Virus record (IMG/VR): IMGVR_UViG_3300042453_004661
Span: 1-64,000 of that record
DNA length: 64,000 bases
DNA from: a virus
Strand: one strand, 5' to 3'
Of the stretch, positions 7,355-58,762 are shown piece by piece (position 1 is the first letter of the stretch; every line of letters begins with the position of its first letter). A model generated the notes under the pieces. The model was not told the origin of the DNA. It ran no database searches and saw nothing but the letters and a program-made list of their open reading frames with translations. The translations under genes were made by a program, and so were the position numbers.

Positions 7355-8227
7355 ATGGGCAAGAAAAACCCCGTCAAATCAAATCCCGGCGTCCTTAATA
7401 TGGGCCAAGTTCAACCCGGCTTCGAGCGGGTTGAGCCGATCATTAGCGTGGACAAGCTTAAGCGACAGTTTTTGTTCGGGATTCCACTCGTAAGTCAACT
7501 GACTGGCGAAGAGATGACTGACGATACGATCAAAGAAATTATCGGCCAAGCTATATCTGATTTTGAGACAGCAACCAGGGTTCCAGTTAGCCCTGTTAGG
7601 ATTAAAGATAGGTTTGACTTCAAGCGCCCTGATGACTTGGCTTTTTCTACTCGTCAGCTTACTCGCTGGCCAGTGATCGAGGTAGAAGCACTCCATGCCT
7701 TATTTCCGGGTCGCATGGACGGTCGCACAATGCCAAATGGTGATCCAATCAATGATCCAGAAAATCAAGCCAACAGCCAGGAGATTGAATATCCCTCAAG
7801 CTGGATTGAGATCGAGGGCGATTCCGGGCTCATGCGTATCATTCCCAAGTCCGGCTCTCTTGTAAATGCTGATATATCATTCATCGCAACCACAGGATAT
7901 CGCTCTATTCTCATGGGGGGCCTAAAGGAATGGCCATCTCTCTGGCGTATAACTTATAGAGCGGGGTTTGATCAGGATAAGATCCCCGGAGTCGTAAATA
8001 AGCTTATTGGTACTTTTGCAGCTATACAGGTAATCAGCAATTGCTACCCAGCTCTTGCCCCTACAAATTCTTTTGGGATTGGGCTAGATGGGATGTCACA
8101 ATCTGTAGGGATTCAGCTTGCCCAGCTTTTGATGGCCCGCATAAACGATCTCATTCAGGATCGAGATCGTCTAATCAATCAAATCAAAATGTATTACGGA
8201 ACTGACATGCAGTTCTCGATATTTTAA
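7355..8227 (+). CDS. Putative head-tail connector / neck protein
   Basis: 290 residues. The middle resembles gp6-like head-tail connector proteins: an acidic helix (DTIKEIIGQAISDFE), then TRWPVIEVEAL, then LWRITYRAGFDQDKIP followed by a helical segment that closes the domain. The first 25 residues are a proline-rich extension, and a C-terminal helix runs to the end (LLMARINDLIQDRDRL). It opens the neck/tail block from its own leaderless-type promoter. The assignment rests on this pattern and on position ahead of tail-completion genes. Confidence 0.5.
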   Translation: MGKKNPVKSNPGVLNMGQVQPGFERVEPIISVDKLKRQFLFGIPLVSQLTGEEMTDDTIKEIIGQAISDFETATRVPVSPVRIKDRFDFKRPDDLAFSTRQLTRWPVIEVEALHALFPGRMDGRTMPNGDPINDPENQANSQEIEYPSSWIEIEGDSGLMRIIPKSGSLVNADISFIATTGYRSILMGGLKEWPSLWRITYRAGFDQDKIPGVVNKLIGTFAAIQVISNCYPALAPTNSFGIGLDGMSQSVGIQLAQLLMARINDLIQDRDRLINQIKMYYGTDMQFSIF

Positions 8228-8235
8228 GGAGACAT

Positions 8236-8649
8236 ATGAGGCTACAAGTAAAGATGCTTTCCAGAAGCTCAAGCCTAAACTGCCTAAAGCATGTTTCAAC
8301 CGTAGAGTTTGCTAGGGGAGAAACTCTTAACTTAATGTTTCAGCTTTTTGATGCAGACACAGGACTTCGATATGTACCAGCATCGGGTGCAACTGTCCAG
8401 GTTCAAATACCACGGTATCTTGAGTACATTCCTACAATGCAGGATGAGCCAATCCCTACCGATTATTCTGTAAACCAACCAGCAACACAGCCTTATGCTG
8501 GAGATGCATCCATATGGTCTACCCCCCTTGTGGCTTCACAGACCTCCAAGATGACATCTCAAAATGTAAAATTCATCCTTACAGAAGGCACGAATGTAAC
8601 AATATCCTCAGTAAAGTTTGCTATCACAGTTTCTGGTGATCAGGAGTAA
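8236..8649 (+). CDS. Hypothetical structural protein
   Basis: 137 residues, predicted beta-rich (VEFARGETLNLMFQLFDAD, VKFAITVSGDQE). AAGGAGA precedes the ATG at good spacing. FARGETLNLMFQL resembles immunoglobulin-like or decoration domains, but no family is claimed. It sits between the connector candidate and the next gene with two-base spacing, so it is part of the neck operon. Confidence 0.55.
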   Translation: MRLQVKMLSRSSSLNCLKHVSTVEFARGETLNLMFQLFDADTGLRYVPASGATVQVQIPRYLEYIPTMQDEPIPTDYSVNQPATQPYAGDASIWSTPLVASQTSKMTSQNVKFILTEGTNVTISSVKFAITVSGDQE

Positions 8650-8651
8650 GT

Positions 8652-9452
8652 ATGGCCCACATTAAGACAAAGCACTCAGAATTTGCTGTCGAGAGCCTGA
8701 TTAACGCCTCAAGAGCAATGAGAGAAGGAAGCCACGAAGAGGCCGAAAAGCATTTTGAAGCTGCAGACGCAGCCATCGGAAGGCATGTAGAGTACCTTAA
8801 CAGCATTGGTGAGACTGCAGAAGCAAATCATTCTAAGAACATGTATGAAGGCCAAAAAAGGGTAATGCGTAGTGCCCACAAGCTAAAAATTAAAGATGCA
8901 AAAAAGTCAGAGGCAAGCGTCAACCAAGTAGGTAAGGGCATATTCTTAAAGTCAGAATTTTCTAAACCAAAATCAACCCCATCAGGAAATCCACGGTACT
9001 CCTATAAGGGATTGCATGAACTTCATCCCGAGGACAGGCAGAAAGTTTTGGGAATGAGCGGAAGCCCATCCATGTATCCCGGGGCCGACCATCACAAATT
9101 TGTTTATCCTACCGATTCATCTGGTCGATTAGTTCATTCTCAAAGAATTTCAGCTCCAGCAGGACACGATTTCGAGGCTGCAAAAGCTTCTATGCAAGAA
9201 TCATCTGGTGGTATTAAGTATTCTGAAGGGCAAGGAGTTAGGGTTCATGATCCAGCCCATGAGCTTCACGGAAAACTAGGCCTAGTTCAATTGCCAAATC
9301 CATCATACCCCAATAAGGTTCAAGTCATGTTTGCTGGTGGCAGAAGAGAATTCCTGGACCAATCGAAGATTCAGCCGAGCGGATCAAAGATGGCAAAGGC
9401 TCTTGCCACAGTAATCAACATCAAATCGTACCTAGGTAAGAAAAAGATTTAA
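8652..9452 (+). CDS. Hypothetical protein with KOW/SH3-like C-terminal segment
   Basis: 266 residues. The N-terminal third is helical (INASRAMREGSHEEAEKHFE). A KSE-containing linker near residues 78-100 (AKKSEASV, LKSEFSKP) is followed by a basic, proline-rich region. Residues about 190-240 (GQGVRVHDPAHELHGKLG, then KVQVMFAGGRREFL) have the V-x-V/G-x-x-G pattern of small SH3-like barrels. No recognised function. KSE linkers recur in other large proteins of this window. Confidence 0.55.
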   Translation: MAHIKTKHSEFAVESLINASRAMREGSHEEAEKHFEAADAAIGRHVEYLNSIGETAEANHSKNMYEGQKRVMRSAHKLKIKDAKKSEASVNQVGKGIFLKSEFSKPKSTPSGNPRYSYKGLHELHPEDRQKVLGMSGSPSMYPGADHHKFVYPTDSSGRLVHSQRISAPAGHDFEAAKASMQESSGGIKYSEGQGVRVHDPAHELHGKLGLVQLPNPSYPNKVQVMFAGGRREFLDQSKIQPSGSKMAKALATVINIKSYLGKKKI

Positions 9453-9454
9453 CT

Positions 9455-10306
9455 ATGTCACGAAAGGGGATGCCAAAACTACCTCAAATTCCAATGAAGG
9501 GGATATCGCAGATCCAAATGCCCAGCAATATACCGCTAGGCACTTTTAATCCCCAGTCTTTTGAAAAGCTTATTGGCGAAATGGGCATTCGCCTTGTCCA
9601 TGCGAGGCCGATACCCAGCCCTCGAGTTAAGGATGTCCGTGGCGATGATATAGATCCATCAGACAACGAGGCTGAAAATGGATTTTTCTATTATGGCCAC
9701 AAAGACTTTACAGGCACATTCATGTCCAATAGTCTTGATCGTCGCTTTAATATAAATGGTACTTTTGATGGCGATCAGGCCGTAATAGTAATCCCAACAA
9801 AATATGCCGATGGGTCCGAAATGGACATTCAGATATTTGATCGCATCATAGCTCCAGATCTTACTGTCCGATACTATCAACGAGTAGAGCATGATCAGAC
9901 AGGAATCGATAGACTTCATTTCCCAGCCGTTAAAGTTGACTTTATTATGGATGCCCATGACCGTCAGTATGCAGAAGGCATCGACTTTCAAATAGACCCA
10001 AGAGGCAGAATCGAATGGCTTCCTGGAGGCAACAGGCCAGGATATGATCCGGTGATGAATTCTGGTGTTATTTACTCAGTAAACTATTATTGTAGACCAG
10101 TTTTTACCGTTATATCTCTACCTCACCAGCTTCGTGCTACACAGACTAGGGGCCCATCCGGTCCCGGGACTCCAAATGTTCAGCATAGATATCCACAACT
10201 TGCCGTTGTAAGGAAAGATTTTGTGCCATTTGATCCAAATGATCAAGTAGGGCCAAGAACTGGCGATGAGCCTGATTATGGATCTGTAAGGGGTCCAAGA
10301 AGATAG
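9455..10306 (+). CDS. Hypothetical structural protein
   Basis: 283 residues. The N-terminus is proline- and methionine-rich (MPKLPQIPMKGISQIQMP) and the core looks beta-rich, with FYYGHKDFTGTFMSNS and DRIIAPDLTVRYYQRVEHD. It contains IDFQIDPRGRIEWLPG, a motif layout seen in phage neck and tail-attachment proteins that describe offsets, though I do not claim a family. The C-terminus is an unstructured charged tail (PRTGDEPDYGSVRGPRR). Start two bases after the preceding stop. Confidence 0.55.
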   Translation: MSRKGMPKLPQIPMKGISQIQMPSNIPLGTFNPQSFEKLIGEMGIRLVHARPIPSPRVKDVRGDDIDPSDNEAENGFFYYGHKDFTGTFMSNSLDRRFNINGTFDGDQAVIVIPTKYADGSEMDIQIFDRIIAPDLTVRYYQRVEHDQTGIDRLHFPAVKVDFIMDAHDRQYAEGIDFQIDPRGRIEWLPGGNRPGYDPVMNSGVIYSVNYYCRPVFTVISLPHQLRATQTRGPSGPGTPNVQHRYPQLAVVRKDFVPFDPNDQVGPRTGDEPDYGSVRGPRR

Positions 10307-10346: not shown

Positions 10347-11735
10347 ATGTTACCTAAGAATTTCACCATGATGTCGGCCCAAACAGGAAAAGATCATGAC
10401 CATCAGGCTCATGCTGGCCTTATGGCTGATATACATGCTTTAGGCTTAAAACATAAAGTTACTGAAATCAATGGAAAGTATGGATACCCAGAAAAGTCTT
10501 TGATGATAGAGCATAAGGGTCGTCCTCAAGACATTTCTGCATTAGACAATCTTGCCAGAAAATACAAGCAAGAGTCTGTTCTTCATTCTTCATGGGAACA
10601 AGGATCTAATGGCAAAGGCTCCCATAAGAATGAATTACGCTATACAGATGGCCGTCCTTCTGTATTTGGTAAAGGCTACAGAGTCAATCCAGAGGCTGAT
10701 GACTACTATAGTGACCACCCCAAGTTTGGTCGTATTCAAATGCATTTAGACTTTGACTCAAAAGAAGCTACAAAAGCAATTACTAGCCAGGGAAATTTGT
10801 CTATTCAAACTGCAGCCCCGGGCCCGGAAGTTCGCCCTGCCCCGCCAGCAATAGCGAAACCAGAAAAAACAGACAACCCTCCTAGGAAAAAGTTCAAAAA
10901 AGTTCCAGCAAATGCGCCGGAGACATCTCCTGAATCAAATGAGTCCCCAGCAAAGCCAGTAAAAGATCTTAACAAGACTATTCTCCATCAAGATGGCGAA
11001 ACCATGATTGACACTAAGTCTCAAGGGATAGCTATTTCTGCCTTGCCAAAATCAATGATTGCATGGGGAGTGACGCATATGGTCCCCATGAAATTAAATG
11101 AAGTAAAAGACTTGTCTATTGGGGATGCTCGTATTAAAATAGTTAAGAAGAGCCCGGATTTATATGCGGGATGGATTGAAAAAGAAGCCAATATTGGACA
11201 TAAGTTTGAGCGCCTTACCCTTCCACAGCTACTCATCCATCTTCAGAGCGCTCTTGAGACTTATGGCAGAGAAGATCAAGTTTTTGCAGTCCCTAGCAAA
11301 ACCGAGTCAGATTCTATTGAAGAAAAAATTCAACCAAAACTTCAAAAAAAGAACCTGACCGAAATAGGCAAAGCCATCTCTGATGCAATTGATGAAACAC
11401 CTGAATCTTCTGAGGCAGATCGTCAGGCTAAGATCTTAGAAAAGCTTGAAACTCTTAGGGCAAAGATACAGTCTGAAATTATCCCTTCTAAAGACCTTGC
11501 ACAAGGAATAGATGAGCCAGAAGAGTTTTGCTCTGCATGCGAAGCCGAAGCCGAAGAATGTTCATGCTACGAAGGATTAAGCGCACCAAGGCTAGAATTT
11601 GATGGCAAAAAGATCAAAATTTTCTTTAAGTCAGACTGGAGCCCCGAAGACAAAGACAATTTTAAGGATGACTTAAAGAAAAGAGCTGGTATAATCCTTA
11701 AGAAGAGGGAAGGCGCCAGGAAGACAAGAAAATGA
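10347..11735 (+). CDS. Hypothetical protein, DUF3293-like N-terminus and Cys-rich C-terminal segment
   Basis: 462 residues. Residues about 15-140 (DHQAHAGLMADIHALGLKH, GKYGYPEKSLMI, ARKYKQESVLHS) follow the pattern of small DUF3293-type domains, in which a short protein distinguishes old from new entries and ends in a glutamine-glutamate-serine motif. That match is from memory and weak. The centre (160-215) is proline/lysine-rich and disordered. Residues about 390-410 hold a cluster CSACEAEAEECSC that could bind metal. The last 15 residues are very basic. The gene overlaps the mCpol-like gene by ATGA, so the two are probably co-translated. Confidence 0.5.
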   Translation: MLPKNFTMMSAQTGKDHDHQAHAGLMADIHALGLKHKVTEINGKYGYPEKSLMIEHKGRPQDISALDNLARKYKQESVLHSSWEQGSNGKGSHKNELRYTDGRPSVFGKGYRVNPEADDYYSDHPKFGRIQMHLDFDSKEATKAITSQGNLSIQTAAPGPEVRPAPPAIAKPEKTDNPPRKKFKKVPANAPETSPESNESPAKPVKDLNKTILHQDGETMIDTKSQGIAISALPKSMIAWGVTHMVPMKLNEVKDLSIGDARIKIVKKSPDLYAGWIEKEANIGHKFERLTLPQLLIHLQSALETYGREDQVFAVPSKTESDSIEEKIQPKLQKKNLTEIGKAISDAIDETPESSEADRQAKILEKLETLRAKIQSEIIPSKDLAQGIDEPEEFCSACEAEAEECSCYEGLSAPRLEFDGKKIKIFFKSDWSPEDKDNFKDDLKKRAGIILKKREGARKTRK

Positions 11736-12919
11736 AAAAACCATTAAATCCAGTAGAAGTGCTTCGGGAGTTGCTCGGTAGAGTACAGGCCCGAAGGGCT
11801 CTTGAACAAGATCCAGAAACCCAAGAATCAATCGACCAAGTCCATGCGGCTGGCGGTGAAATGATGCCCGACTATAAGGGTAAAAGCGTATACATTTCAT
11901 TTGATGGCGATAATATTGGGAATGCAGTCGCTCGAGCCGAGAATATGGACGATGAGCAAACCCTTGCCCAGGTATCGCAAAAGATTCAGGCAGGGCAAGA
12001 TCTGTTTGTTAATTTTCTCACCCAACATCAGGGCAGGCTGATTCAGGCAGGGGGAGATGAAGGATTAGGAATTTGTAACTCAAACTGCCTTGTAGACCTT
12101 GAAGAATTCAGACAACAATACAAGGAATTAGTTGGAGCTACAGTTACCGTAGGGGTAGGCACAAAAATATCAGAAGCTACCAAGGCCAGGATGCTAGGCA
12201 AGCTTCGTGGAAAAGATCAAGTTTGCCATTTTGACGGATCAACAGAAAAAGAAATTGAGCTTAGAAGCCAAACAGAAGACCCAGAAGCCAAGAAGCTTGG
12301 CCAGGCTGGTCTGATTGGCGGTGTGCCTAAATTTGGGATTGATCAAGATCAGTCACAAGATCAGGACTGGCAACAAGACTATGACGCACCAGAGCAAGAA
12401 GAGTCGTCAGGCATTTCCGATCATGCAAGTCGATTTGGCGAAGCAGAAGACCCAGGCGTAGAAGACGAATACGATATGCCTTCAGGGCAAGAGCCAGAGG
12501 CCGAACAGCAGGCTCCTGACTCCCAAGATGAATTTGAAGACCCATGGGACCAGGCCAAGCATGAGCGAGAAGGCAGTAAGCCCCAATCCAAAGAAAGAAG
12601 GATTGTAGATAAAGAAACTGGAAGAGAATTTGTTCTTCATGGTCTAGACCACGGAGAGTCAGAAGAAGATTTCCAGCCAGAAATGCAACAGCCGGAGGAA
12701 GAAGAGCAAGAGCCTCAACAGGCCCAAGAGTCAGAAGAGCCCCAGCAAGAAGAGCAAGAGCTTTCTGATGAAGAAAAAGGATATGGGGACTACACTGATC
12801 TTCCTTTTGAAGAGCGTGATGATTTACAAAATCGATTGATTGCAGAAAAAATCGCCAAAGAAGAGGGTGTTAATCCAAATTTTCTTTATCTCGCCTCTAA
12901 AAAATTATCGAGGGATTAA
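11732..12919 (+). CDS. mCpol/GGDEF-like nucleotide polymerase domain protein
   Basis: 395 residues. Residues about 50-168 form a minimal palm domain: beta strand VYISFDGDNIG (D58, D60) and the catalytic hairpin QAGGDEGLGI (GGDE 107-110), then ATVTVGVGTKIS and a KLRGKDQV segment. This order matches mCpol (minimal CRISPR polymerase) and GGDEF-like cyclases, which make cyclic di- or oligonucleotides. All expected acidic residues are present. Residues 200-380 are acidic, Gln/Glu-rich and disordered, and include FEDPWDQAK at about 268-276, shared exactly with the LRV-repeat protein at 53426. It sits between neck proteins, overlaps the upstream gene by ATGA, and abuts the 835-residue gene. Function in a phage is unknown: signal production, signal decoy or structural use are all open. 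Confidence 0.75.
   Translation: MKKPLNPVEVLRELLGRVQARRALEQDPETQESIDQVHAAGGEMMPDYKGKSVYISFDGDNIGNAVARAENMDDEQTLAQVSQKIQAGQDLFVNFLTQHQGRLIQAGGDEGLGICNSNCLVDLEEFRQQYKELVGATVTVGVGTKISEATKARMLGKLRGKDQVCHFDGSTEKEIELRSQTEDPEAKKLGQAGLIGGVPKFGIDQDQSQDQDWQQDYDAPEQEESSGISDHASRFGEAEDPGVEDEYDMPSGQEPEAEQQAPDSQDEFEDPWDQAKHEREGSKPQSKERRIVDKETGREFVLHGLDHGESEEDFQPEMQQPEEEEQEPQQAQESEEPQQEEQELSDEEKGYGDYTDLPFEERDDLQNRLIAEKIAKEEGVNPNFLYLASKKLSRD
12533..12555 (+). repeat. Copy 1 of a shared coding segment (FEDPWDQAK)
   Basis: This 23-base stretch encoding FEDPWDQA is identical to 56390-56412 in a different gene 44 kb away, and both copies continue with the sequence K-H/Y-E/D-R-E. Shared exact coding between otherwise unrelated proteins points to recent exchange or to a functional tag. 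Confidence 0.8.
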
Positions 12920-15427
12920 ATGGACTTTCGGGAGGCTGTTCGCAGACATCATGAGCATCTTAAAGATCCCACTAAAGAAAGTGGCAATGAATCTGCAGAA
13001 AATTTCATCAATATCCTACAAAGAGCAGAAGATCGCACACACCATGCATCCTCTCTTAGCTGGCTAAACGATCTTTTTCAAGATGGTCATCTATCTCAAG
13101 ATCAGCAAGATAGGATCATTAACCTTAAGCATATTCCTAAGACCAATCAATCCTCACAGCTCGTAGACGGCATAATGGAAAATATGCCTGATGAAAAAAG
13201 AAAACAAATACTTAACGACAAGTTAGGAATTACGGGCGGTAAAAAGATTCGTGATGTAGAAAAAGATCACGACTGGAATAACTGGGAATCCCCTCCAACA
13301 GGTGATGAATCCGATCCCTACGCAAGATTTTATAAAGGCATTGATTGGGAATCGTCAAAGCATCTTACGGATGATCAGGCCGAGCATATCAAGAGACATG
13401 GAAGCGTTGAGCAAAAGCTAAATCTATTTTCAAATCCACATATAGATCCAAGACATGGAATTGAAATGTGGAATAAATGGAGCGACAACGATACTCACCA
13501 CGGATACCATAGGCATCATTTATCAGATTATTTGATGCGCCATCAGGAAGATAACATAGAGGATGACATAGAAGATAGGGCTTATACAATAGCTCAAAAT
13601 CGTCTTCCAATTGATAAGTGGGCCAAAGAGACTTTGGCAAAAAATGGCTTAAAATATTTTAGACATAAAGATGAGCTTTTAAATCATATCAATGACAATC
13701 TAGACCTTTACGATACTGTAGGCCCAAATCCTGGATTCAATAAAGATGCCCCCGTAGACCCGGCTAATAATCCAGAAACAATAGATTACGCAGACCCCAA
13801 CAATCCTCAATCCAAGACTATTAACGATCACCCAAATCTTCCCCAGCTTCTCCAGCAGGCCGATAATCAGCTCATCAACACAAAAGGCTATCCTAGCGTC
13901 ATAGGGCAAAGAAGTGAAGGAATCCCAAAACTTCATGAGGGCGAATGGCATCATGATGCCGTAAGGGAAATGTCAAAAAATATTGCCGAAGACCTCCGTG
14001 AAGAAGCCATTTCTTCAGCTTATAAAAATGAAGACTATCTTCCAAAGCATCTCAGGGGCAAGATCTCTTCAATTAAAAATGAATTAACATCAAAATCTCA
14101 AATAGATACAAAAAACGCATTTGCCAACAACGGCTTAGATATTTCTAAATTTTCTTCAGATCATGAATACGCCCCTGGCTTGTACCATCTAAACATGCTC
14201 AAGGACCATACTGAAAATAATAAAGGCAAAATAGATCTAGGATCTATGGTCAAAAAATATCCGGACATGAAAGATGCCCTAAAGAGTGCATTCGGAGACA
14301 AGCAGTCATTGTCCTCAAAAGATATTGATTCAAAAATAAAATCTTTGCCAAAAACAAAATATTCAATTTCTGCAAGGAGCTGGGAGCCACAAAATCCTCA
14401 AAATCTTAACAGAAGAAATCAGCTTGTTTTAAGGCTAGAGCATACTCCCGAATCCATGGCCCAAATCAAATCAGATCCATCACTAGAAAATATATTCAAT
14501 AAGGTGCATAAGTCGTCAAAAGCTTCAGATCATCCTGTAGGGACAAACACGATAGGATGGGCAAGAATAGATACTTCCGACCCTTCTCATTGGGTAATAG
14601 ATGAGACTCAATCTGATTTTAGCGAATCATTGATTAGAACAATATCTGAAAATGAATACAATCCATCAAAGAGGCAGTCTATAGTAGATGGGATTCAAAA
14701 AATTAGAGACATTCATGGAAACTGGCAAGAAAATCTAATGAGCCATATTGTTGATTTGGCTAAAAAGCATGGGGTTGAAAAGCTTTCTATTCATACCCCG
14801 GAATCAAAAGCAAGTCAGCTTGGCGCCAGCAGAATCCATAGTGCGTATAGGGAAAACTATCAGAAAACCCCCAAGAGCATGGGATTCTCAAAAACAGAAG
14901 GCCTATCTTTGCCATTGACCGACCTTGGGAGAATAGCTTTTACTAAAAAAATCCCATACGATGATAAAGTAAGACAAGATACTCATTATTTTGCTATGGG
15001 CCATCATAGACAGCGATACCATGTACATAAAGCAATTGCAGATAGGATTAGATCAGAAAGCCCTGAAATTGCTGCCGAACACGATGAGACCGCAAAAAAG
15101 CATAAGATGCTTTTTTTCTCGCACCGAAGAAAAGGCCTACGAGTAAAGGCTCCGATTTTTATTGATAACCCACCAAACGATCTCAACGATAGAAGAAGAA
15201 GCGTATCATTTCATGAGCCTCCTCTTAACATGGAAGGGTTGTTAGCGTCAAAAAAAGATTTAAAAGAAGAACCTTCTGGTTTTGTAGGATATCATTCAGA
15301 CTCTATTGTTGATGGAAGCATGAAGCCCGAGTCTTTGCCAGCCCACACCCTAGAGATTGGGCAAAAAATGAAGAAATCAGTAAGGCTAGGGAAAATTCTA
15401 GCTCGTAAAATTATGGAGGCATTATGA
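12920..15427 (+). CDS. Large polyvalent-type protein with EIQSD-like domain
   Basis: 835 residues, helical and charged. The N-terminal half (1-470) shows no known domain and has many His/Asp/Asn. Around residues 546-570 it has GWARID followed by WVIDETQSDFSESL, matching the h-h-R-x-D...EIQSDW motif of a domain found in phage large polyvalent proteins. About 60 residues later comes VDLAKKHGVEKLSIHTPES (starting near 612), in the place where those proteins have an AAE-x-G-x-x-x-hAWTT segment. The C-terminus is basic (KKSVRLGKILARKIMEAL). Polyvalent proteins are large phage and element proteins thought to be delivered with DNA. Whether this one is packaged is inference from its place in the neck operon. 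Confidence 0.55.
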   Translation: MDFREAVRRHHEHLKDPTKESGNESAENFINILQRAEDRTHHASSLSWLNDLFQDGHLSQDQQDRIINLKHIPKTNQSSQLVDGIMENMPDEKRKQILNDKLGITGGKKIRDVEKDHDWNNWESPPTGDESDPYARFYKGIDWESSKHLTDDQAEHIKRHGSVEQKLNLFSNPHIDPRHGIEMWNKWSDNDTHHGYHRHHLSDYLMRHQEDNIEDDIEDRAYTIAQNRLPIDKWAKETLAKNGLKYFRHKDELLNHINDNLDLYDTVGPNPGFNKDAPVDPANNPETIDYADPNNPQSKTINDHPNLPQLLQQADNQLINTKGYPSVIGQRSEGIPKLHEGEWHHDAVREMSKNIAEDLREEAISSAYKNEDYLPKHLRGKISSIKNELTSKSQIDTKNAFANNGLDISKFSSDHEYAPGLYHLNMLKDHTENNKGKIDLGSMVKKYPDMKDALKSAFGDKQSLSSKDIDSKIKSLPKTKYSISARSWEPQNPQNLNRRNQLVLRLEHTPESMAQIKSDPSLENIFNKVHKSSKASDHPVGTNTIGWARIDTSDPSHWVIDETQSDFSESLIRTISENEYNPSKRQSIVDGIQKIRDIHGNWQENLMSHIVDLAKKHGVEKLSIHTPESKASQLGASRIHSAYRENYQKTPKSMGFSKTEGLSLPLTDLGRIAFTKKIPYDDKVRQDTHYFAMGHHRQRYHVHKAIADRIRSESPEIAAEHDETAKKHKMLFFSHRRKGLRVKAPIFIDNPPNDLNDRRRSVSFHEPPLNMEGLLASKKDLKEEPSGFVGYHSDSIVDGSMKPESLPAHTLEIGQKMKKSVRLGKILARKIMEAL

Positions 15428-50242: not shown

Positions 50243-51562
50243 ATGAGCAAACTACCTCCATTTTTTTCTAAGACCCAAGACCTTCAAAAAGCCGAGGATG
50301 AGACTATCAATCCTACGCTTGGCCTTGAGACTCCAAAGAAAATCATCAAGCTTAAAGAAGGACACAATAAAGGCCGTCAGGCTAAGGTAGTAGCTGAAAA
50401 CTCCCAAGAATTTAAGATCGTCCCCAGGACCAATCAAAAACCATTTAAGGTAGCTGGGGGGCCAGCCGATACTGCTGGTCAAATTCTTGATGAAGCAAAT
50501 AGTCCAATTGTATGGGAAAAGAATCGTAAACATGATATTTTGGCCCCAGGTGGGATTCACAAGAAAGAACACGAAGAAAAAGTAAAGAATATCTACCAAC
50601 CTAAAAAGGCCGAGCCTAATTTTGTATTTACAAAAGACAATCACCACCAAGGCATCCCTCATGATGAAGATCAAAAGAATCTAATTCATGGCATTGATCT
50701 TCGTGAGATTAAAAAGCTTGGCGATGCGGGAGGCGACTCAGATGACCTTGGATGGACCGCCGAGTGGGCAGCTTGTGGTGTTGGCAAGAATAAAGCCGGG
50801 AAAAGCTGTCTCGTCAAGGGTAGGATGCCGGATGAATTTCTAGATAAAAATTCTGGCATTGGTCGAGAGATGGCGTCAGATTATAAGTTATTCAGTACGG
50901 CACAGAGAGAAGCCGTTTATTACAATATAGCAAAAGCATTAGGGCTTCATAAATACATTCCTGTTACATCTGTTGTCCACGATCAAACCAAGGCCCCTGT
51001 AAAAAACTTTAAGAGGGCCCCACAGGATCATGGCCAGGCTGGCAATCATTACTCTGTCATGGAAATGATTCCAAATGCCAAGCATTACTCGGGCCTCCCC
51101 TCACAACTCGGCACAATGAAGAGAGCCCATGACAGTGGGGACCTACACAAGCTTGGCCTTATGAATGCTTTTTTGTATAATACAGATAGACATGGCAAGA
51201 ACTTCATGTTTAGTGAAAATAACAATAATTTTCACCTGATTGACCATGGCCTTACTTTTGGATATCGTGGAAGGCCATTTGTTATGCCTGCCTATCTTAG
51301 GATCGCCCATCTCGAGCATCGGCTTCCTGATGAAATACATCCGGAAGCCAGAAACTGGATCAATAATCTCAATATTGATGACATAAAAAAAGAGCTAGAC
51401 TCCCACGACATACCTATTCAGCACAAAAGAGCTACATTGGCTGCAATTCGAAAAGCAAAAGAATCGATTGGTGGAGATCCAGAGAATAAAAGAGCGTTTA
51501 GCTCACATCTAAGAGAGATAAGTAATGCAGGATTAAGATCATTCCTTAGAGGAGATGATTAA
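50243..51562 (+). CDS. PI3/4-kinase- or HipA-like kinase-fold protein
   Basis: 439 residues. Residues 1-130 are polar and basic, with LQKAEDE at 15-21. The kinase part runs from about 165. REAVYYNIAKALGLHKYIPV (222-241) is the alpha-C-like helix with E223; YSVMEMIP is a hinge-like segment; N-T-D-R-H-G-K-N (313-320, catalytic D315, N320) and HLIDHGLTF (331-339, metal D334) match PI3/PI4-kinase and HipA-type active sites (D-R-H...N ... I-D-H-G). Missing canonical glycine loop is usual for this group. Phosphate target unknown (lipid, protein or nucleotide). It starts the large effector-like block, 9 bases after the coiled-coil gene. Confidence 0.7.
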   Translation: MSKLPPFFSKTQDLQKAEDETINPTLGLETPKKIIKLKEGHNKGRQAKVVAENSQEFKIVPRTNQKPFKVAGGPADTAGQILDEANSPIVWEKNRKHDILAPGGIHKKEHEEKVKNIYQPKKAEPNFVFTKDNHHQGIPHDEDQKNLIHGIDLREIKKLGDAGGDSDDLGWTAEWAACGVGKNKAGKSCLVKGRMPDEFLDKNSGIGREMASDYKLFSTAQREAVYYNIAKALGLHKYIPVTSVVHDQTKAPVKNFKRAPQDHGQAGNHYSVMEMIPNAKHYSGLPSQLGTMKRAHDSGDLHKLGLMNAFLYNTDRHGKNFMFSENNNNFHLIDHGLTFGYRGRPFVMPAYLRIAHLEHRLPDEIHPEARNWINNLNIDDIKKELDSHDIPIQHKRATLAAIRKAKESIGGDPENKRAFSSHLREISNAGLRSFLRGDD

Positions 51563-53401
51563 ATGATCAAATTAGGGTATTACAAATTTGGACATATTGA
51601 TCATGAATCTGGAGCCATGGCCGATGAAGGTATCGTGCATGTTGATGGAGAACATGTATCTGTAGTAGACGACCATGCGGGATACTTGGCGACTATTATC
51701 CCAGACGGATCTGTTGGTATGGAAGAAGGTGAGCATATTATGCGAAGCATCAATATGAATCAGTATTCCAGGTTTGTCTACATAGGCGATAAAGAAGAAG
51801 ATATTGCCGAGCATTATAATCCAGTTAATGCCAGTCCCGAACTCGAGAAGGGCATCAAGGACATGATGGCAGGAGCCATGATGGGTATTGCAGGCGCAGG
51901 CGGGATGCTGTATGCGCCTAGCGCAACAAACCAATCTGCAGTATCTAGCCCATCAGTTCCTGTTAGCCGGGCCAGCTCTGACTCTGAAATTGTTGACAAC
52001 CTTGCAAGGATCGAGTCTAGCGGTGGAAAGAATGTAGTCCACGGCATGACCGGAGACTCTGTCCATACAGATATTCAAAGAGCAGTTGGGCATACCGGAA
52101 ACCTCCCGTCTTCTGTAATTGAAGAGTCTGCAAAGAATCCGTATTTAAAAAATACCGATATCGGTCAAGGCGTTAGAAGAATTGCTGGGCTTGAGGGCTT
52201 TGCAACAGGAAACACATACAACACCAGATCCTATATTGAAAAGACTCCGGCAAAAGAAAAGTCAAAACATTACGCCAAGATCAACAAAATTACTCAGAAT
52301 CCTGAAAATGACCGAAAGATTACTGAGGCTCGAATCAAAAACCACCGAGACATATTTTCCGAACTCACCAAAGACCCGCATGAGCTAGAACTTTTGATTG
52401 CTCATGCTCATCATAATTATTACCTAAATACCAAGAAAATCTTCAGAAAGCATGGCATTAAAGGGATTATCAATCATGCCGGGGCAGAAGGTAATTATGT
52501 GAAAAAGTATGCCGAGACACTTCCTGATGGACATCCTACTAAAAACCTTTTTAATAAGCATTACAAGAAGAAATTCTTCAAGAAAAGCATTGCCGAAGAT
52601 TATGAGCTAGAGGATCTTCAAAAGTCTACCAAGCAATATAAAGAAATGCTTGGCGATGTAACCCAACACAAAGAAGCTTTTGATGTTGCAAAGAAAATGC
52701 CCAATTCAAACTGGGGAACTTGGGTCATTAGAAACTACAAGCAAAATCCAGAAAAATTTCATAGCTTAAAAGAAGAAATTGTAAATCATGCCGGACTTCA
52801 TGAGAATCTCGAATATTCTGGCGTTAGATTTGATAAAGAGCATGACTTTGATCATGGCATAGGCATGCTTAGGGATGCAAATAAGAAATTTGAAGAAAGA
52901 TTCTCTAAAGATACGCACATCATAATCCCGCAAGGTGAAAAAAAGGTCATGGATGCTGGAGATGGAATGGCTTGGTTTTCGGCTGGGAAATCATGGTGTC
53001 CCAGGGAAGCCAAAGCTATGGGCCATTGTGGGAATCAGCCTTCCGCAAGGCCTTTTCATGACTTATTTTCATTAAGAACTGTCCACAAGGTAAATGGCAA
53101 GGAATACCATGAGCCTCATGTCACTTTTATTCTTGATAAAGAAAATAACACTTTTGGAGAAATGAAGGGCCGGACAAACAAAAAACCAACTAAGCAATAT
53201 CATAATGCAATTGCCCAATTGTTGGCTAGGGGATATGTTCCGTTTGGTGGAGTCCATGCCCCAGACCAAGATTTTCATATTGACGATTTGAGTCCGGAAT
53301 TGAAGAAATTTGTTGCCGAAAAAAATATACGAGCCTTTATCAACTCTTCTGATCCAGAGTTGTCAGCAAAAGCTCTAGAGGCATCTATGGGGCGTTCTTA
53401 A
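51563..53401 (+). CDS. Large multidomain protein with PcfJ-like C-terminal domain
   Basis: 612 residues. N-terminal 105 residues look beta-rich (HVDGEHVSVVDDHAGYLATI). LEKGIKDMMAGAMMGIAGAG near 97-116 is a hydrophobic, small-residue segment that could insert in membranes. Residues about 141-156 (IVDNLARIESSGGKN) resemble a degenerate transglycosylase active site, weak. The C-terminus (about 470-590) has AGKSWCPREAKAMGHCGN, then FSLRTVHKVNGKEYHEPHVT and GEMKGRTNKKPTKQYHNAI, which resembles PcfJ-like domains of unknown function on plasmids and phages. Probably a virion or injected protein. TAAATG junction with the kinase gene. Confidence 0.55.
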   Translation: MIKLGYYKFGHIDHESGAMADEGIVHVDGEHVSVVDDHAGYLATIIPDGSVGMEEGEHIMRSINMNQYSRFVYIGDKEEDIAEHYNPVNASPELEKGIKDMMAGAMMGIAGAGGMLYAPSATNQSAVSSPSVPVSRASSDSEIVDNLARIESSGGKNVVHGMTGDSVHTDIQRAVGHTGNLPSSVIEESAKNPYLKNTDIGQGVRRIAGLEGFATGNTYNTRSYIEKTPAKEKSKHYAKINKITQNPENDRKITEARIKNHRDIFSELTKDPHELELLIAHAHHNYYLNTKKIFRKHGIKGIINHAGAEGNYVKKYAETLPDGHPTKNLFNKHYKKKFFKKSIAEDYELEDLQKSTKQYKEMLGDVTQHKEAFDVAKKMPNSNWGTWVIRNYKQNPEKFHSLKEEIVNHAGLHENLEYSGVRFDKEHDFDHGIGMLRDANKKFEERFSKDTHIIIPQGEKKVMDAGDGMAWFSAGKSWCPREAKAMGHCGNQPSARPFHDLFSLRTVHKVNGKEYHEPHVTFILDKENNTFGEMKGRTNKKPTKQYHNAIAQLLARGYVPFGGVHAPDQDFHIDDLSPELKKFVAEKNIRAFINSSDPELSAKALEASMGRS

Positions 53402-53425: not shown

Positions 53426-56400
53426 ATGGCTATCCCGCCCAAAAAAATCTATACCCAGATGCAAAAGTCTGATTCAGATGGCCAGGCTCCTATCTCTTTT
53501 AATTTTAAAAGCCTTAAGCCGGAGCAGAAAGCAAAATTCCTTCAAAATCCTAATCTTCATCCAGATATACTTCATAAGTTAAGTGAGGATGATAATTTAA
53601 AGTTGTCAATAGCAGAGAATCCTAATACTCGCTCAGACACACTTCATAGGCTAAGCGATAGTGAGTATGGGATTGTAAGGGGTGCAGTAGCAGAGCATCC
53701 AAATACCCACCCAGACACGCTTCATAAGTTAAGTGAAGATAGGGATGATGATGTGAGGAGGATGGTAGCAGAGAATCCCAATGCCCATCCGGATACAATT
53801 CATAAGCTGAGTGGGGATAAGAATTCGCGTGTAAGGGAGGCAGTAGCAAAGCATCCTAACACCCATCCAGATATACTTCATAAGTTAAGTGGGGATAATT
53901 CTTTTATTGTAAAAGGAGCAGTAGCGAGAAATCCTAATGCCCATCCAGACACGCTTCGTAAGTTGAGTGAAGATGAGGGGGATTGGTCTGTAAGGGAGGC
54001 GGTAGCAAAGCATCCTAATATTCATCCGGACACGCTTCATAGGCTAAGTGAGAGTGAGTATGAGACTGTAAGGGAGGCAGTAGCAAGGAATCCAAATGCC
54101 CACCCAGATATACTTCATAAGTTGTGGAAAGACAAGTGGCCAAGAGTAAGATCTGCAGTAGCAGAGCATCCTAATACCCGCTCAGATATACTTTTTGGAT
54201 TATGTTACGATAGGGATTTTGAAGTAAGGGCTGGGGCAGCAAGAAATCCAAATATTCGTCCAGCTCTACTTGATAAGTTAAGTAGGGATACTCATTGGCC
54301 TGTAAGACAGGCAGCAGCAGAGCATCCTAATAACCATCCGGATATGCTTGATAAGTTAAGTAGGGATGTGGAGTGGGATGTAAGAGAAGCAGCCCGTAAA
54401 AACCCTAACCATCCAAATAACCAGATGAAAAAGTCTGATTCAGATAGCCAGACCCCTATCTCTTTTAATTTTGCAAACCTTAAGCCGGAGCAGAAAGCAA
54501 AATTCCTTCAAAACCCCAATGTTCATCCTAATGCGCTTCATGCTTTAAGCGGGGATGAGAATCATGAAGTAAGATTTGCAGTAGCAAAGCATCCTAATGC
54601 CCATCCAGATACACTTCATGGACTAAGTGAAAGAGAAGATGAGAATGAAAGTATAAGGCAGGCAGTAGCAAAACATCCAAATACCCATCCAGACACGCTT
54701 CATAAATTGAGTAAGGATGACGATTTAAAGCGGTTTGTGGCAATTCACCCAAATACCCATCCAGACACGCTTAATAGGTTAAGTAAAGACAAGTGGTCAG
54801 GAGTAAGAAGGGAGGTAGCAAGGAATCCAAATGCCCATCCAGATCTACTTCATAAGCTGAGCGAGGACAGGGATGTGTATGTAAGGGAAGGGGCAGCAAG
54901 GAATCCAAATGCCCATCCAGATCTACTTCATAAGTTAAGCGGGGATGAGAATCATGAAGTAAGATTTGCAGTAGCAAAGCATCCTAATGCCCATCCAGAT
55001 ACACTCCATAAGTTGAGTGGGGATAGCTTCGACTACAGCATAAGGGAGGCGGTAGCAATTCATCCCAATACCCATCCAGACATACTTCATAATTTAAGCG
55101 AGGATGAACATCTTTATGTAAGAGATGCAGTAGCAAAGAATCCAAATACCCGTCCAGATACTCTTCATAAATTGAGCGGGGATGAGGATGTAGATATAAG
55201 ACAGATAGTGGCCAGGAGTGCTAATGCTGGTCCAGAAACACTTCATAAGCTGAGTGGGGATAGGTCTTTTATTGTAAAAATGGAAGTGGCAAGGAATCCT
55301 AATACTCACCCAGATACACTTCATAAGCTGAATGGGGATGAGTCTTTTACTATAAGAGAGGCGGCCCGTAAAAACCCTAACCATCCAAATAACCAGATGA
55401 AAAAGTCTGATTCAGATAGCCAGACCCCTATCTCTTTTAATTTTGCAAGCCTTAAGCCGGAGCAGAAAATAAAATTCCTTCGAAACCCCAATGTTCGGCT
55501 TGATCTACTTCAGCAGTTAAGTGAGGATGAGGATGGAGATGTAAGGCAGGCAGTAGCGAAACATCCTAATACCCATCTAGATATAATTCATAAGTTGAGT
55601 GGGGATGAGCATAGCGGTACAAGGGCTATAGTAGCAAGGAATCCCAATATCCGTCCAAATATACTTCATGCATTAAGTCACGATAGGGATTTTGAAGTAA
55701 TGGCTGGGGCAGCAAGGAATCCAAATGCACATCCAGAAATACTTCAGAGGTTGAGTGAACATGAACATCCGTATGTAAGAATAGCGGTAGCAGAGAATCC
55801 TAATACCCATCCAGATATACTTCATAAGCTTAGTCAGGATGCGTATCAGCCTGTAAGAATGGCGGTAGCAAACCATAAAAATACCCACCCAGATATACTT
55901 AATGTGCTGAGTGATGATAAGGACGAGCTTATAAGAGAGGGGGTAGCAAAGAATCGCAATACCCATCCAGATACAATTCATAAGCTGAGTGGCGATAAGG
56001 ATGAGGATGTAAGATATGCGGTAGCAAGGAATCCAAATGCCCACCCAGATATACTTCATAGGCTGAGTCAAGACGATAATAGGTATGTAAGACAGGCGGT
56101 AGCACGACATCCCAGCACCCATCCAGACACGCTTCATAAATTAAGTGGGGATGAATTTTCTAGCGTAAGACAGGGATTGGCAATGAATCCTAATACTCAT
56201 CCGGATATGCTCAATAAGTTGGGCGGGGACAGAGATGGAGATGTAAGAGAAGCAGTAGCAAAACATCCAAATACCCATCCAGACACGCTTCGTAGGTTAG
56301 GTGGAGATTTAGATGTAGATGTAAGATATGCAGCCCTTCAACATCCTAACCATCCAAATAACCAGATGAAAAAGTCCGGTTCTACTCAGTTTGAAGACCC

Positions 56401-58762
56401 ATGGGACCAGGCTAAATACGATAGGGAAGAAGAGCAGTCTCTTGATAAAGCAGAATTCCTCACCGATGAAGATATTGCTTCAGATGACAAGGCTGATGGC
56501 ATTTATTTAATACCCCATAGCCATGAAAAAGATAGGATTGCTTCTTCAAGCAAATTTCATGGCACAGAGCTTAAGAGCGCATCAACACTATACAGGCATT
56601 ACAAGCATACTCCCCACCATCCTGTATCTCTTGGTCTCAAGTATTTGATTCATAGAATAGAAAATGCAAAAGACTATGACGAGGGGAATGCAGAAGAGCT
56701 AGATAATGATTTCTTGCAATTACATCAAGCGGGTAAGGCTTCAGAGAAAAACGGGTGGGTTAAATCTAGAGATTTGCAAGAATTTTATGAGAATCATGGC
56801 AAAAGACTAATTCCCCAGCTTATTGGTCACAAAAATAAGCTAGCAGAAGTCATCATGAAGCATCATCCGGAGTCAGTTGTCTATATTGATGGAAAACCGC
56901 ATGTAGCATTGACCAGGGGTCTAAATACTAAGATGCCAACCCAAGACCATGCATTGGCTAGCTATGCAGATAAAGACAATACTGGATTTGGCAGTCATAT
57001 GCATCATAGGTTTGTACCTCTTGATAATCTTTGGTATTCATATGCGTACGGCCCATACCCAGCTACAAGCCCAAGTTTTGGAAACGAACACGAATATCTT
57101 GTTTCTCCCCATAAGATCGTACCAGCAAAAAAAGAAGATATTAAAGAGATAGCCGGGAATAGAACTCTGTCACATGGATATATGCCTAATCTGGAAAGTG
57201 ACATAATAAATAACAAATTGTCTTTGGAAGATTTGCGTAAGGTTCATCCAGCATTGCTAGGAAGGGTCGTAATGAATTCTCTGGGCAATCGAGACCAGGA
57301 AACTCATGAGAAAGTTATTGATCATGTTTTGGACAAATTAGATCAACAAATTAAGTCTCCCAACATGAATAGCGACCTGGTCGGTTCCTTGCTCAATTCT
57401 TTGAAAAATGGCACTCTCAATACCTCAAAAGACATGACACATAGGGTTATACAAAAGATATCTGAAATTAACCATCGAGATCATGGGCATGTCTTGGCAA
57501 ATGATGCAACTTCCAAAATGAATGAAATAATAAGTAGGGAAGCGGGCGGCCTTCACGAAAAGACCTACAGAACTGCATTCGATCATGCGAAGTCGGCTTT
57601 TACATTAGAGGCTCAGAATTTAATGTTTGGCCTTGCTCAAAATCCATTCAGTCCTCAAGATGTGCTTCATGAATTATCCAATAGCGAAGTGCCTGGCATG
57701 AAAGAAAAAGTGGCAAGCAATTCAAATACTCATTCCGACACGCTCCATATCCTGTCTAATTTAGAAGACAATAGAGTTAAGCTTGCTGTTGCAGATAATC
57801 GATCTACTCACCCCAATACACTTCATGATATGGTAAAAAAGACAAAAACTCCAAAATCAATACACGGAACTTTGCCTCTTCCGGAAGATCATGATAATCT
57901 TAAGTTGCATAAAGTAATTGCTACCAATCCAAATACAATGGATGAAACTCATCATTTATTGATGGATAAATACCCATACTCAAGCCTTCCCGCACAAGCG
58001 ACTGATATCGGCATGCGTATTGCTTCTAATCCAAATATTTCAGATTCAATGATGAATAAGTTAAGCGTGAGTAGTTCGCCTGGAGTAAGGCGGAATATTG
58101 CCAGTAACTTAAAAACTAATGCAGATCTACTCCATAAACTAAGTGAAGATAATGATGATCATGTTAAATTCGCAGTAGCAAGCAATGAGAATACCCGCTC
58201 AGACACACTTCATAAACTAAGTGAAGATAGATATAATTTTGTAAGAACTGCAGTAGCAGAGCATCCCAATACCCATCCAGATACTCTTCATGCGATGAGT
58301 GAAGATCCAGTTGATGGAGTAAGGCGATCAGTAGCGGGAAGGTTAAATACTCGTCAAGATACGCTTCATAAAATGAGTGAGGATAAGTGGGCAGGAGTAA
58401 GGCAAGAGGTAGCAAGGAATCGCAATGCCCATCCAGACACACTTCATAAATTGAGCAATGATGAATATCTTGGCGTAAGAGAAGTGTTAGCAAGAAATCC
58501 AAGTATCCGCCAGGACACGCTTCATGTTTTAAGTAAGGATAAGGAAGATATGATAAGGCGGTCGGTAGCAAATCATCCTAATACCCATCCAGATACACTT
58601 CATGAGCTTAGTCAGGATTATAATGAGTTTGTAAGGGGGTCGGTGGCAAAAAATCCAAATACTCACCCAGACCTACTGGATAAGCTAAGTAAAGATGAAA
58701 GTCATGATGTAAGATGGGCAGTAGTAAATAATCCTAACTATAAGCCTAAGAATATGGGATAA
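53426..58762 (+). CDS. Giant LRV-repeat protein with internal ADP-ribosyltransferase-like domain
   Basis: 1778 residues. Residues 12-980 are three super-blocks of 322-324 residues; each starts with a KSDSD header and PISFNF...LKPEQK and holds 11 repeats of about 24-26 residues (HPDTLHKLSED...VREAVAKHPNT), the pattern of leucine-rich repeat variant (LRV) solenoids. After the third block comes MKKSGSTQFEDPWDQAK, shared with the mCpol-like protein. Residues about 1060-1240 resemble an R-S-E ADP-ribosyltransferase: R1164 in ALTRGLN, S1179 in LASYADK and E1221-x-E1223 in GNEHEYL. The C-terminus (about 1405-1778) has about 13 further LRV repeats. A protein-binding solenoid carrying a toxin-like enzyme is unlike any phage protein I recognise. 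Confidence 0.75.
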   Translation: MAIPPKKIYTQMQKSDSDGQAPISFNFKSLKPEQKAKFLQNPNLHPDILHKLSEDDNLKLSIAENPNTRSDTLHRLSDSEYGIVRGAVAEHPNTHPDTLHKLSEDRDDDVRRMVAENPNAHPDTIHKLSGDKNSRVREAVAKHPNTHPDILHKLSGDNSFIVKGAVARNPNAHPDTLRKLSEDEGDWSVREAVAKHPNIHPDTLHRLSESEYETVREAVARNPNAHPDILHKLWKDKWPRVRSAVAEHPNTRSDILFGLCYDRDFEVRAGAARNPNIRPALLDKLSRDTHWPVRQAAAEHPNNHPDMLDKLSRDVEWDVREAARKNPNHPNNQMKKSDSDSQTPISFNFANLKPEQKAKFLQNPNVHPNALHALSGDENHEVRFAVAKHPNAHPDTLHGLSEREDENESIRQAVAKHPNTHPDTLHKLSKDDDLKRFVAIHPNTHPDTLNRLSKDKWSGVRREVARNPNAHPDLLHKLSEDRDVYVREGAARNPNAHPDLLHKLSGDENHEVRFAVAKHPNAHPDTLHKLSGDSFDYSIREAVAIHPNTHPDILHNLSEDEHLYVRDAVAKNPNTRPDTLHKLSGDEDVDIRQIVARSANAGPETLHKLSGDRSFIVKMEVARNPNTHPDTLHKLNGDESFTIREAARKNPNHPNNQMKKSDSDSQTPISFNFASLKPEQKIKFLRNPNVRLDLLQQLSEDEDGDVRQAVAKHPNTHLDIIHKLSGDEHSGTRAIVARNPNIRPNILHALSHDRDFEVMAGAARNPNAHPEILQRLSEHEHPYVRIAVAENPNTHPDILHKLSQDAYQPVRMAVANHKNTHPDILNVLSDDKDELIREGVAKNRNTHPDTIHKLSGDKDEDVRYAVARNPNAHPDILHRLSQDDNRYVRQAVARHPSTHPDTLHKLSGDEFSSVRQGLAMNPNTHPDMLNKLGGDRDGDVREAVAKHPNTHPDTLRRLGGDLDVDVRYAALQHPNHPNNQMKKSGSTQFEDPWDQAKYDREEEQSLDKAEFLTDEDIASDDKADGIYLIPHSHEKDRIASSSKFHGTELKSASTLYRHYKHTPHHPVSLGLKYLIHRIENAKDYDEGNAEELDNDFLQLHQAGKASEKNGWVKSRDLQEFYENHGKRLIPQLIGHKNKLAEVIMKHHPESVVYIDGKPHVALTRGLNTKMPTQDHALASYADKDNTGFGSHMHHRFVPLDNLWYSYAYGPYPATSPSFGNEHEYLVSPHKIVPAKKEDIKEIAGNRTLSHGYMPNLESDIINNKLSLEDLRKVHPALLGRVVMNSLGNRDQETHEKVIDHVLDKLDQQIKSPNMNSDLVGSLLNSLKNGTLNTSKDMTHRVIQKISEINHRDHGHVLANDATSKMNEIISREAGGLHEKTYRTAFDHAKSAFTLEAQNLMFGLAQNPFSPQDVLHELSNSEVPGMKEKVASNSNTHSDTLHILSNLEDNRVKLAVADNRSTHPNTLHDMVKKTKTPKSIHGTLPLPEDHDNLKLHKVIATNPNTMDETHHLLMDKYPYSSLPAQATDIGMRIASNPNISDSMMNKLSVSSSPGVRRNIASNLKTNADLLHKLSEDNDDHVKFAVASNENTRSDTLHKLSEDRYNFVRTAVAEHPNTHPDTLHAMSEDPVDGVRRSVAGRLNTRQDTLHKMSEDKWAGVRQEVARNRNAHPDTLHKLSNDEYLGVREVLARNPSIRQDTLHVLSKDKEDMIRRSVANHPNTHPDTLHELSQDYNEFVRGSVAKNPNTHPDLLDKLSKDESHDVRWAVVNNPNYKPKNMG
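53459..56365 (+). repeat. Three tandem super-repeats, each 11 LRV units
   Basis: Super-blocks begin at 53459, 54425 and 55397 and the fourth header at 56366, giving lengths of 966, 972 and 969 bp. Each contains the same header and exactly 11 LRV units and ends in NPNHPNNQ or HPNHPNNQ. DNA similarity between units is high, so recombination and copy-number change are likely. Confidence 0.9.
56390..56412 (+). repeat. Copy 2 of the FEDPWDQAK coding segment
   Basis: Identical over 23 bases to 12533-12555 in the mCpol-like gene. It lies exactly at the junction between the third LRV super-block and the ADP-ribosyltransferase-like region. Confidence 0.8.
57640..58752 (+). repeat. C-terminal LRV repeat array
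   Basis: About 13 LRV units of 24-30 residues (for example HPNTHPDTLHKLSEDR type), less regular at the start and near-canonical from about 58120 on. It is separated from the triplicated array by the enzyme-like domain. Confidence 0.8.

What the first reader, a model, noticed from the sequence alone, without database searches (positions are those of the whole stretch)
53426..58762. ADP-ribosyltransferase-like domain embedded in a giant LRV repeat protein
Residues about 1060-1240 hold R1164, S1179 and E1221-x-E1223, the R-S-ExE order of arginine-type ADP-ribosyltransferases. It is flanked by three super-blocks of LRV repeats and a further LRV array. Known: LRV arrays form protein-binding solenoids. 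Seen: motifs and repeats. Inference: a large recognition scaffold carrying an effector enzyme that may be injected.
Basis: partly seen in the sequence, partly recalled or inferred. Interest (0 to 1): 0.85.

Follow-up and report, generated by a model that had tools for sequence, protein, structure and literature searches.

The report
Phage giant repeat protein, ADP-ribosyltransferase-like core
A contractile-tailed virus of bacteria makes a 1,778-residue protein of dozens of leucine-rich-variant repeats wrapped around a small domain that carries, so far only at motif level, the catalytic pattern of ADP-ribosylating enzymes; it is probably packed in the virus head, cut into pieces there and delivered into the host cell.

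Summary
ORF 53426-58762 (1,778 aa) has three LRV super-blocks (55-60% identical), a non-repeat region (983-1400) and a fourth LRV array; R1164, S1179, E1221 and E1223 are where stated. LRV is certain (Pfam E 9e-152). The ART call is not proven. R-S-ExE order alone is worthless (43-46% of background frames and shuffles have it). A fuller pattern, RG...S[FYW][TSA]...F[AGS]...ExE-hydrophobic, is shared with 6 of 7 phage T4-type Mod ARTs and absent from 596 background frames and 3,000 shuffles, but it was chosen post hoc. No family, sequence or genome search found a homologue carrying the motif; AlphaFold2 (one sequence) and hhalign gave nothing. Context is the best new evidence: the record is a myovirus distantly related to Myxococcus phage Mx1. 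In Mx1, homologues of the two outer genes of this cassette are fused to the head maturation protease, and a neighbouring head-module protein carries a Pfam ART-PolyVal domain. In another relative the LRV array is fused to the PcfJ-like protein encoded next door here, again in the head module. An [LMI]xK[SA] motif recurs at domain borders of head-module proteins. Best reading: a head-packaged, protease-cut, injected effector polyprotein. ART about 0.6.

The parts
53426..58762 (+). LRV / candidate-ART / LRV protein, 1778 aa
   Evidence: ORF; Pfam LRV E 9.4e-152; no phage or plasmid relative of the central domain
53465..54430 (+). LRV super-block 1 (residues 14-335)
54431..55402 (+). LRV super-block 2 (residues 336-659)
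55403..56371 (+). LRV super-block 3 (residues 660-982)
56372..56485 (+). Linker 983-1020: MKKSGS...LDKAEF (two [LM]xK[SA] motifs) and FEDPWDQAKYDRE, a 14-residue stretch shared (11 of 14 identical) with ORF 11732-12919
56621..57145 (+). Candidate ADP-ribosyltransferase domain (residues about 1066-1240): helices, then strands carrying R1164-G, S1179-Y-A, F1188-G, E1221-H-E1223-Y-L-V
   Evidence: motif pattern shared with T4-type Mod ARTs; helices-then-strands order in low-confidence AF2 models; no homology hit
56915..56917 (+). codon of R1164 (RG motif)
56960..56962 (+). codon of S1179 (ASYA motif; compare ModA ASYD)
57086..57094 (+). codons of E1221-H1222-E1223 (ExE)
57173..57625 (+). Probably helical region 1250-1400, no family hit (best weak hits E 0.004 or worse)
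   Evidence: sequence
57635..58759 (+). Fourth LRV array (residues about 1404-1778)
50243..51562 (+). PI3/PI4-kinase / HipA-like kinase; homologous to the C-terminus of the Mx1 protease-effector fusion (26%) and to the Mx1 'kinase' (29%)
51563..53401 (+). PcfJ-like protein (name from memory; no Pfam hit); 30% identical to the LRV-fused protein of L015/L019
58820..61822 (+). DUF5661 + GNAT + large C-terminal domain homologous (33%, 1e-63) to part of the Mx1 'putative prohead protease'

Best explanation
The gene encodes a late, virion-associated effector polyprotein of a myovirus. It is most likely packed into the phage head, cut at [LMI]xK[SA] linker sites by the head maturation protease into three LRV blocks and one enzyme-LRV piece, and injected with the DNA. 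The enzyme piece is most likely an R-S-E-type ADP-ribosyltransferase that modifies a host protein early in infection, as T4 Alt does; the LRV arrays would act as solenoid scaffolds that bind target or cargo. Shown here: the ORF, the LRV arrays, the motif residues, the cassette, and its homology to head-module proteins of Mx1 and of L015/L019. Inferred: the ART fold and activity, packaging, cleavage, injection, and the role of the LRV arrays.
For: LRV. ART-type anatomy: TRG / ASYA / FG / EHEYLV.P aligns by eye with ModA WRG / ASYD / FA / EQEVMIP and relatives; pattern in 6 of 7 Mods, 0 of 596 background frames, 0 of 3000 shuffles. Helices-then-strands order in both low-confidence AF2 models. 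Context: myovirus (tail sheath; baseplate); TerL relative in the phage collection is Mx1 only. Mx1's head maturation protease (N-terminus hits phrog_1028, E 1e-4) continues into homologues of window ORFs 58820 and 50243 in one polypeptide, encoded between portal and major capsid protein. An Mx1 head-module protein next to its kinase carries ART-PolyVal (E 2.8e-16) with NUDIX and GNAT. In L015 a PcfJ-like + LRV ORF lies in the same module as the head protease (phrog_1028, 1e-15), the major head protein (phrog_752, 1e-58) and a homologue of window ORF 7355. [LMI]xK[SA]: 54 observed vs 22 expected in 18 selected head/effector proteins, permuted motifs 22, 34 and 31 vs 22-23, non-structural proteins 27 vs 24; in the LRV protein all five [LM]xK[SA] sites lie at block borders or in linkers. 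Literature: ARTs are enriched in myoviruses and often head-packaged (PMC9503650); T4 Alt is head-packaged and cut by gp21 after L/I-x-E (PMC9026906).
Against: No family, sequence, fold or profile hit to any ART. The R-to-S spacing (15 residues) is shorter than in the Mods (roughly 25-30 by eye). The pattern and the motif were chosen after looking at the sequences, and the 18 proteins were hand-picked; three of the five LRV-protein sites come from duplicated blocks. The ART in Mx1 is of another clade (ART-PolyVal, H-Y-D type per PMC5512222). In the window the cassette sits between baseplate/tail genes rather than capsid genes, and portal and capsid genes were not identified in this record. 51563 shows no motif enrichment.
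Confidence: 0.5

Rival explanations
1. The central domain is not an ART: it is an unrelated orphan domain or a structural spacer, and the R-S-ExE residues are coincidental. The protein is then a non-enzymatic LRV scaffold in the virion.
For: Bare R-S-ExE is common by chance. No homology or fold support.
Against: The detailed residue context at all four sites matches Mod ARTs and is very rare in background. Gene context favours enzymatic effectors.
Confidence: 0.35
2. The domain is related to SspB-type ClpXP adaptors and redirects host proteolysis.
For: Residues about 1153-1207 match six bacterial proteins at 27-36% identity, per-genome E 0.001-0.01. I recognise these as SspB from memory (C-terminal LRVVK).
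Against: 399 genomes were searched, so about four hits at E<=0.01 are expected by chance, and orthologues are not independent. The match stops before the ExE strand. Pfam gave nothing for P0001. Not seen in 791 genomes of two other phyla at E<=0.005.
Confidence: 0.05
3. The protein is part of the baseplate/tail, not the head: the cassette lies between a baseplate wedge gene and a tail protein, and the LRV arrays are structural or receptor-related.
For: Neighbours 41680 and 44244 are baseplate genes and 61825 onward look tail-like. T4-like Alt genes also sit next to baseplate genes (PMC5512222).
Against: Homologues of the flanking cassette genes are fused to the head protease in Mx1 and the LRV protein is in the head module in L015.
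Confidence: 0.2

Closest known systems
Polyvalent proteins of phages (Iyer et al. 2017, PMC5512222)
   Same: Large multi-domain virion-linked proteins with ART, GNAT and other effector domains, thought to be packaged and injected; Mx1, the nearest named relative, has one with ART-PolyVal + NUDIX + GNAT
   Different: Here LRV solenoid arrays surround an R-S-E-type candidate instead of the H-Y-D ART typical of polyvalent proteins; a text search of that paper finds no mention of LRV
Phage T4 Alt / ModA / ModB
   Same: Candidate R-S-ExE residues in the same order and with similar local sequence to the Mods; T4 Alt is a head-packaged ART processed by the prohead protease (PMC9026906)
   Different: No detectable sequence or profile similarity to the Mods (Alt itself was not compared); shorter R-S spacing; no LRV in the Mods; the suggested cleavage signal is LxK, not L/IxE
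LRV repeat proteins (PF01816)
   Same: 26-residue LRV units, E 9.4e-152
   Different: Four arrays, three of them super-block duplications, flanking an extra domain, in a phage
PcfJ-like + LRV protein of IMG/VR contigs L015/L019
   Same: LRV arrays 40-54% identical and a domain 30% identical to the upstream gene 51563
   Different: Single polypeptide, few LRV units, no match to the candidate ART domain in either record

Membership tests
ART superfamily, R-S-E clade | R in strand 1, S in strand 2, ExE (or E) in strand 5, in that order | tested here: inconclusive
   Residues and order present with ART-like local context, but strand positions rest on low-confidence models
ART superfamily, R-S-E clade | Detectable similarity to an ART family | tested here: not met
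   Pfam, PHROGs, NCBIfam at E<=10, PDB, hhalign against seven Mod ARTs: none
ART superfamily, R-S-E clade | ART fold (two three-stranded units) | tested here: inconclusive
   AF2 pLDDT 42 and 48, pTM 0.27 and 0.43, no Foldseek hit
ART superfamily, R-S-E clade | Conservation of R1164/E1223 in homologues | not testable with these tools
   No homologue found in viral contigs, genomes, phages or plasmids
ART superfamily, R-S-E clade | NAD-dependent transferase activity | not testable with these tools
   bench assay needed
LRV repeat family PF01816 | Tandem units of about 26 residues matching the profile above cut-off | tested here: met
Phage polyvalent / injected effector proteins | Multi-domain architecture with several effector-type domains in one polypeptide | tested here: inconclusive
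   The cassette as a whole has kinase, GNAT and DUF5661 domains; in this protein the only candidate enzyme is the unproven ART
Phage polyvalent / injected effector proteins | Encoded with virion (head) genes or fused to head proteins | tested here: inconclusive
   Met for homologues of neighbouring cassette genes and of the LRV array in Mx1 and L015; in the window itself the neighbours are baseplate/tail genes
Phage polyvalent / injected effector proteins | Present in virions and delivered to the host | not testable with these tools
   needs virion proteomics
Head maturation protease substrate | Short consensus cut site at domain borders, cleaved in the virion | tested here: inconclusive
   [LMI]xK[SA] enriched 54 vs 22 in selected proteins; cleavage itself untested

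The most novel reading that the evidence does not exclude
A phage head-packaged polyprotein in which LRV solenoid blocks and an R-S-E ADP-ribosyltransferase are separated by sites for a head maturation protease of LxK specificity, so that one gene delivers several repeat scaffolds and an LRV-tethered ART of a new sequence family.
Probability: 0.3. Interest if true: 0.75.

Novelty: new variant of a known kind. Interest (0 to 1): 0.5.

Why it matters
If the ART is real, it would be an ART family that none of the libraries searched here detects, in an architecture (LRV-enzyme-LRV) for which I found no report, in a phage lineage whose nearest named relative infects Myxococcus. The cassette also points to a testable rule: an LxK[SA] signal that would mark head-packaged, protease-cut effectors in this lineage, as L/I-x-E does in T4 and AxE in SPN3US.

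Tried and rejected
Homologue searches: three exact-peptide viral scans and one genome scan with the domain, the whole ORF or a neighbour gene, and degenerate motif scans EHEY.V.PH, VP..N.WYSY and [ND]EHEY.V.P: no relatives, only chance matches. tblastn to phages and plasmids: none or E 0.5. Six-frame HMMER search of about 1200 genomes of three phyla: only SspB-like matches and stray short matches. Searching Mx1, L015, L019 and L022 with the domain: nothing. Two AF2 single-sequence jobs and three Foldseek searches: uninformative. hhalign to a Mod profile: about half of the shuffles scored at least as well. Searches of the own record with Pfam ART PF01129 and Peptidase_S77 rang nowhere, controls included, so they say nothing. 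Rejected: the R-S-ExE order as evidence by itself.

Full report
OBSERVATION. ORF 53426-58762 (+) is open and encodes 1778 aa. Pfam LRV matches with E 9.4e-152 and LRV_2 with 3.5e-87; a six-frame search of the record finds 25 LRV matches, all in this frame. Super-blocks 14-335, 336-659 and 660-982 each start with a K-S-D-S-D..ISFNF..LKPEQK segment and are 55-60% identical to each other; the C-terminal array is 42-43% identical to them.

IS THE ART MOTIF MORE THAN CHANCE? The bare order R, S, ExE is not: 35 of 110 windows of this phage's own proteins and 44% of shuffles contain it, and 256 of 596 background frames. I then compared the region with seven T4-type Mod ARTs taken from phage records. 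They show [YW]RG, then S-[FY]-x, then F[AS], then E-x-E-x-M-x-P. The window shows TRG, ASYA, FG, EHEYLVSP; ModA has ASYD at the S position. The pattern RG / S[FYW][TSA] / F[AGS] / ExE-hydrophobic-hydrophobic is in the window and 6 of 7 Mods but in 0 of 596 background frames and 0 of 3000 shuffles. This is supportive, but I set the residue classes after seeing the window, so the figures overstate the case. The R-to-S spacing, 15 residues, is shorter than in the Mods.

WHAT DID NOT WORK. No library has a family for the domain: Pfam, PHROGs and NCBIfam to E 10 (one NCBIfam hit, PRK02250, at E 0.048), PDB by sequence. No related sequence spanning the motif was found in viral contigs, genome contigs, phage or plasmid records, or some 1200 genomes of three phyla. 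The only coherent match was to bacterial proteins that I recognise as SspB adaptors, over about 55 residues that miss the ExE strand, at E values expected by chance for that many genomes. AlphaFold2 on single sequences gave pLDDT 42 and 48 and Foldseek nothing. hhalign against the Mod alignment scored like shuffles. The ART assignment therefore stands on motif anatomy and context.

THE VIRUS. The window belongs to a 124,585-base virus record with a contractile tail sheath and baseplate genes. Its terminase matches one phage in the collection, Myxococcus phage Mx1, at 28%, and a short viral contig at 87%. Portal and capsid genes were not identified in the record; homology to Mx1 and L015 genes of the head/connector region appears at 7355-10306.

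THE CASSETTE. Between baseplate and tail-like genes lie four genes: a PI3/PI4-kinase/HipA-like kinase (50243), a PcfJ-like protein (51563; name by resemblance, no Pfam hit), the LRV/candidate-ART protein, and a DUF5661+GNAT protein with a large C-terminal domain (58820). In Mx1 the annotated 'putative prohead protease', encoded between portal and major capsid protein, is one polypeptide with a head-maturation-protease N-terminus (phrog_1028, E 1e-4), then a homologue of 58820 residues 450-878 (33%), then a homologue of kinase 50243 (26%). A second Mx1 protein, next to another kinase homologue, carries NUDIX, GNAT and ART-PolyVal (E 2.8e-16). In viral contigs L015 and L019 a PcfJ-like domain 30% identical to 51563 is fused to an LRV array. 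In L015 that gene lies about 6 kb after the major head protein (phrog_752, 1e-58), which follows the head protease (phrog_1028, 1e-15). These fusions and positions tie the cassette to the phage head.

A POSSIBLE PROCESSING SIGNAL. The three super-blocks and the enzyme part are joined by QM[QK]KS segments and LDKA. The motif [LM]xK[SA] also recurs in the L015 scaffold-like protein (7 seen, 0.5 expected), the Mx1 portal, scaffold-like protein and polyvalent protein, and near the N-terminus of the L015 and Mx1 capsid proteins (LNKALVAGYG, LRKAMEAGNF). Over 18 head or effector proteins [LMI]xK[SA] is seen 54 times against 22 expected, while permuted motifs are near or mildly above expectation (22, 34, 31), and non-structural proteins show 27 against 24. 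T4 gp21 cuts after L/I-x-E and also trims Alt (PMC9026906); SPN3US gp245 cuts after AxE (PMC10052503). I infer that the head protease of this lineage may cut after LxK. The protein set and motif were chosen by eye, so this is a hypothesis.

MECHANISM. Most likely: made late, packed in the head, cut into three LRV blocks and an ART-LRV piece, injected, and the ART modifies a host protein. ARTs are enriched in myoviruses and often sit in head-packaging contexts (PMC9503650); polyvalent proteins are thought to be processed into functional units (PMC5512222). Shown: arrays, residues, gene homologies. Inferred: fold, activity, packaging, cleavage, delivery, LRV function.

NOVELTY. Injected phage ARTs and polyvalent proteins are known kinds. 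The LRV-enzyme-LRV arrangement, an R-S-E candidate without any detectable family, and the LxK processing idea would make it a new variant. No paper in the library held 'leucine rich repeat variant', 'LRV' and 'phage' together, which is weak evidence of absence.

Noticed in passing
window 11732-12919 (+): Virion-module ORF with a minimal CRISPR polymerase (mCpol) palm domain (Pfam E 1.7e-13; PADLOC CARF_HEPN_mCpol 6e-5), a domain known from nucleotide-signalling defence, here in a phage; Mx1 has a GGDEF-domain protein in its head module.
   Followed up: partly
window 11732-12919 residues 267-280 and 53426-58762 residues 988-1001: Two otherwise unrelated proteins share FEDPWDQAK[HY][ED]RE (11 of 14 identical, E 4e-6); possibly a packaging, docking or processing signal. 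No other copy in the record.
   Followed up: partly
L005:12888-16604: Mx1 'putative prohead protease' is a protease fused to two effector-like domains that are separate genes in the window.
   Followed up: yes
L005:24290-28729: Mx1 'NUDIX hydrolase' also has GNAT and ART-PolyVal domains, the ART not named in the record's annotation.
   Followed up: yes
L015:1288-4920 and L005:12888-20989: Capsid protein and head protease of this lineage share a stretch KA[LM].AG...A.P[ST].L..G...Q.E that probably marks the maturation site.
   Followed up: partly
window 5854-6573 (+): Phage-encoded subtilisin-like peptidase (S8, E 6e-23) beside a calcineurin-like phosphoesterase.
   Followed up: no
record G000 103750-105465 (L002/L003): Phage-encoded GroEL-like chaperonin (Cpn60, E 8e-23).
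   Followed up: no
window 12920-15427 (+): 835-aa ORF with no family hit near the mCpol-like gene; looks like a multi-domain effector.
   Followed up: no
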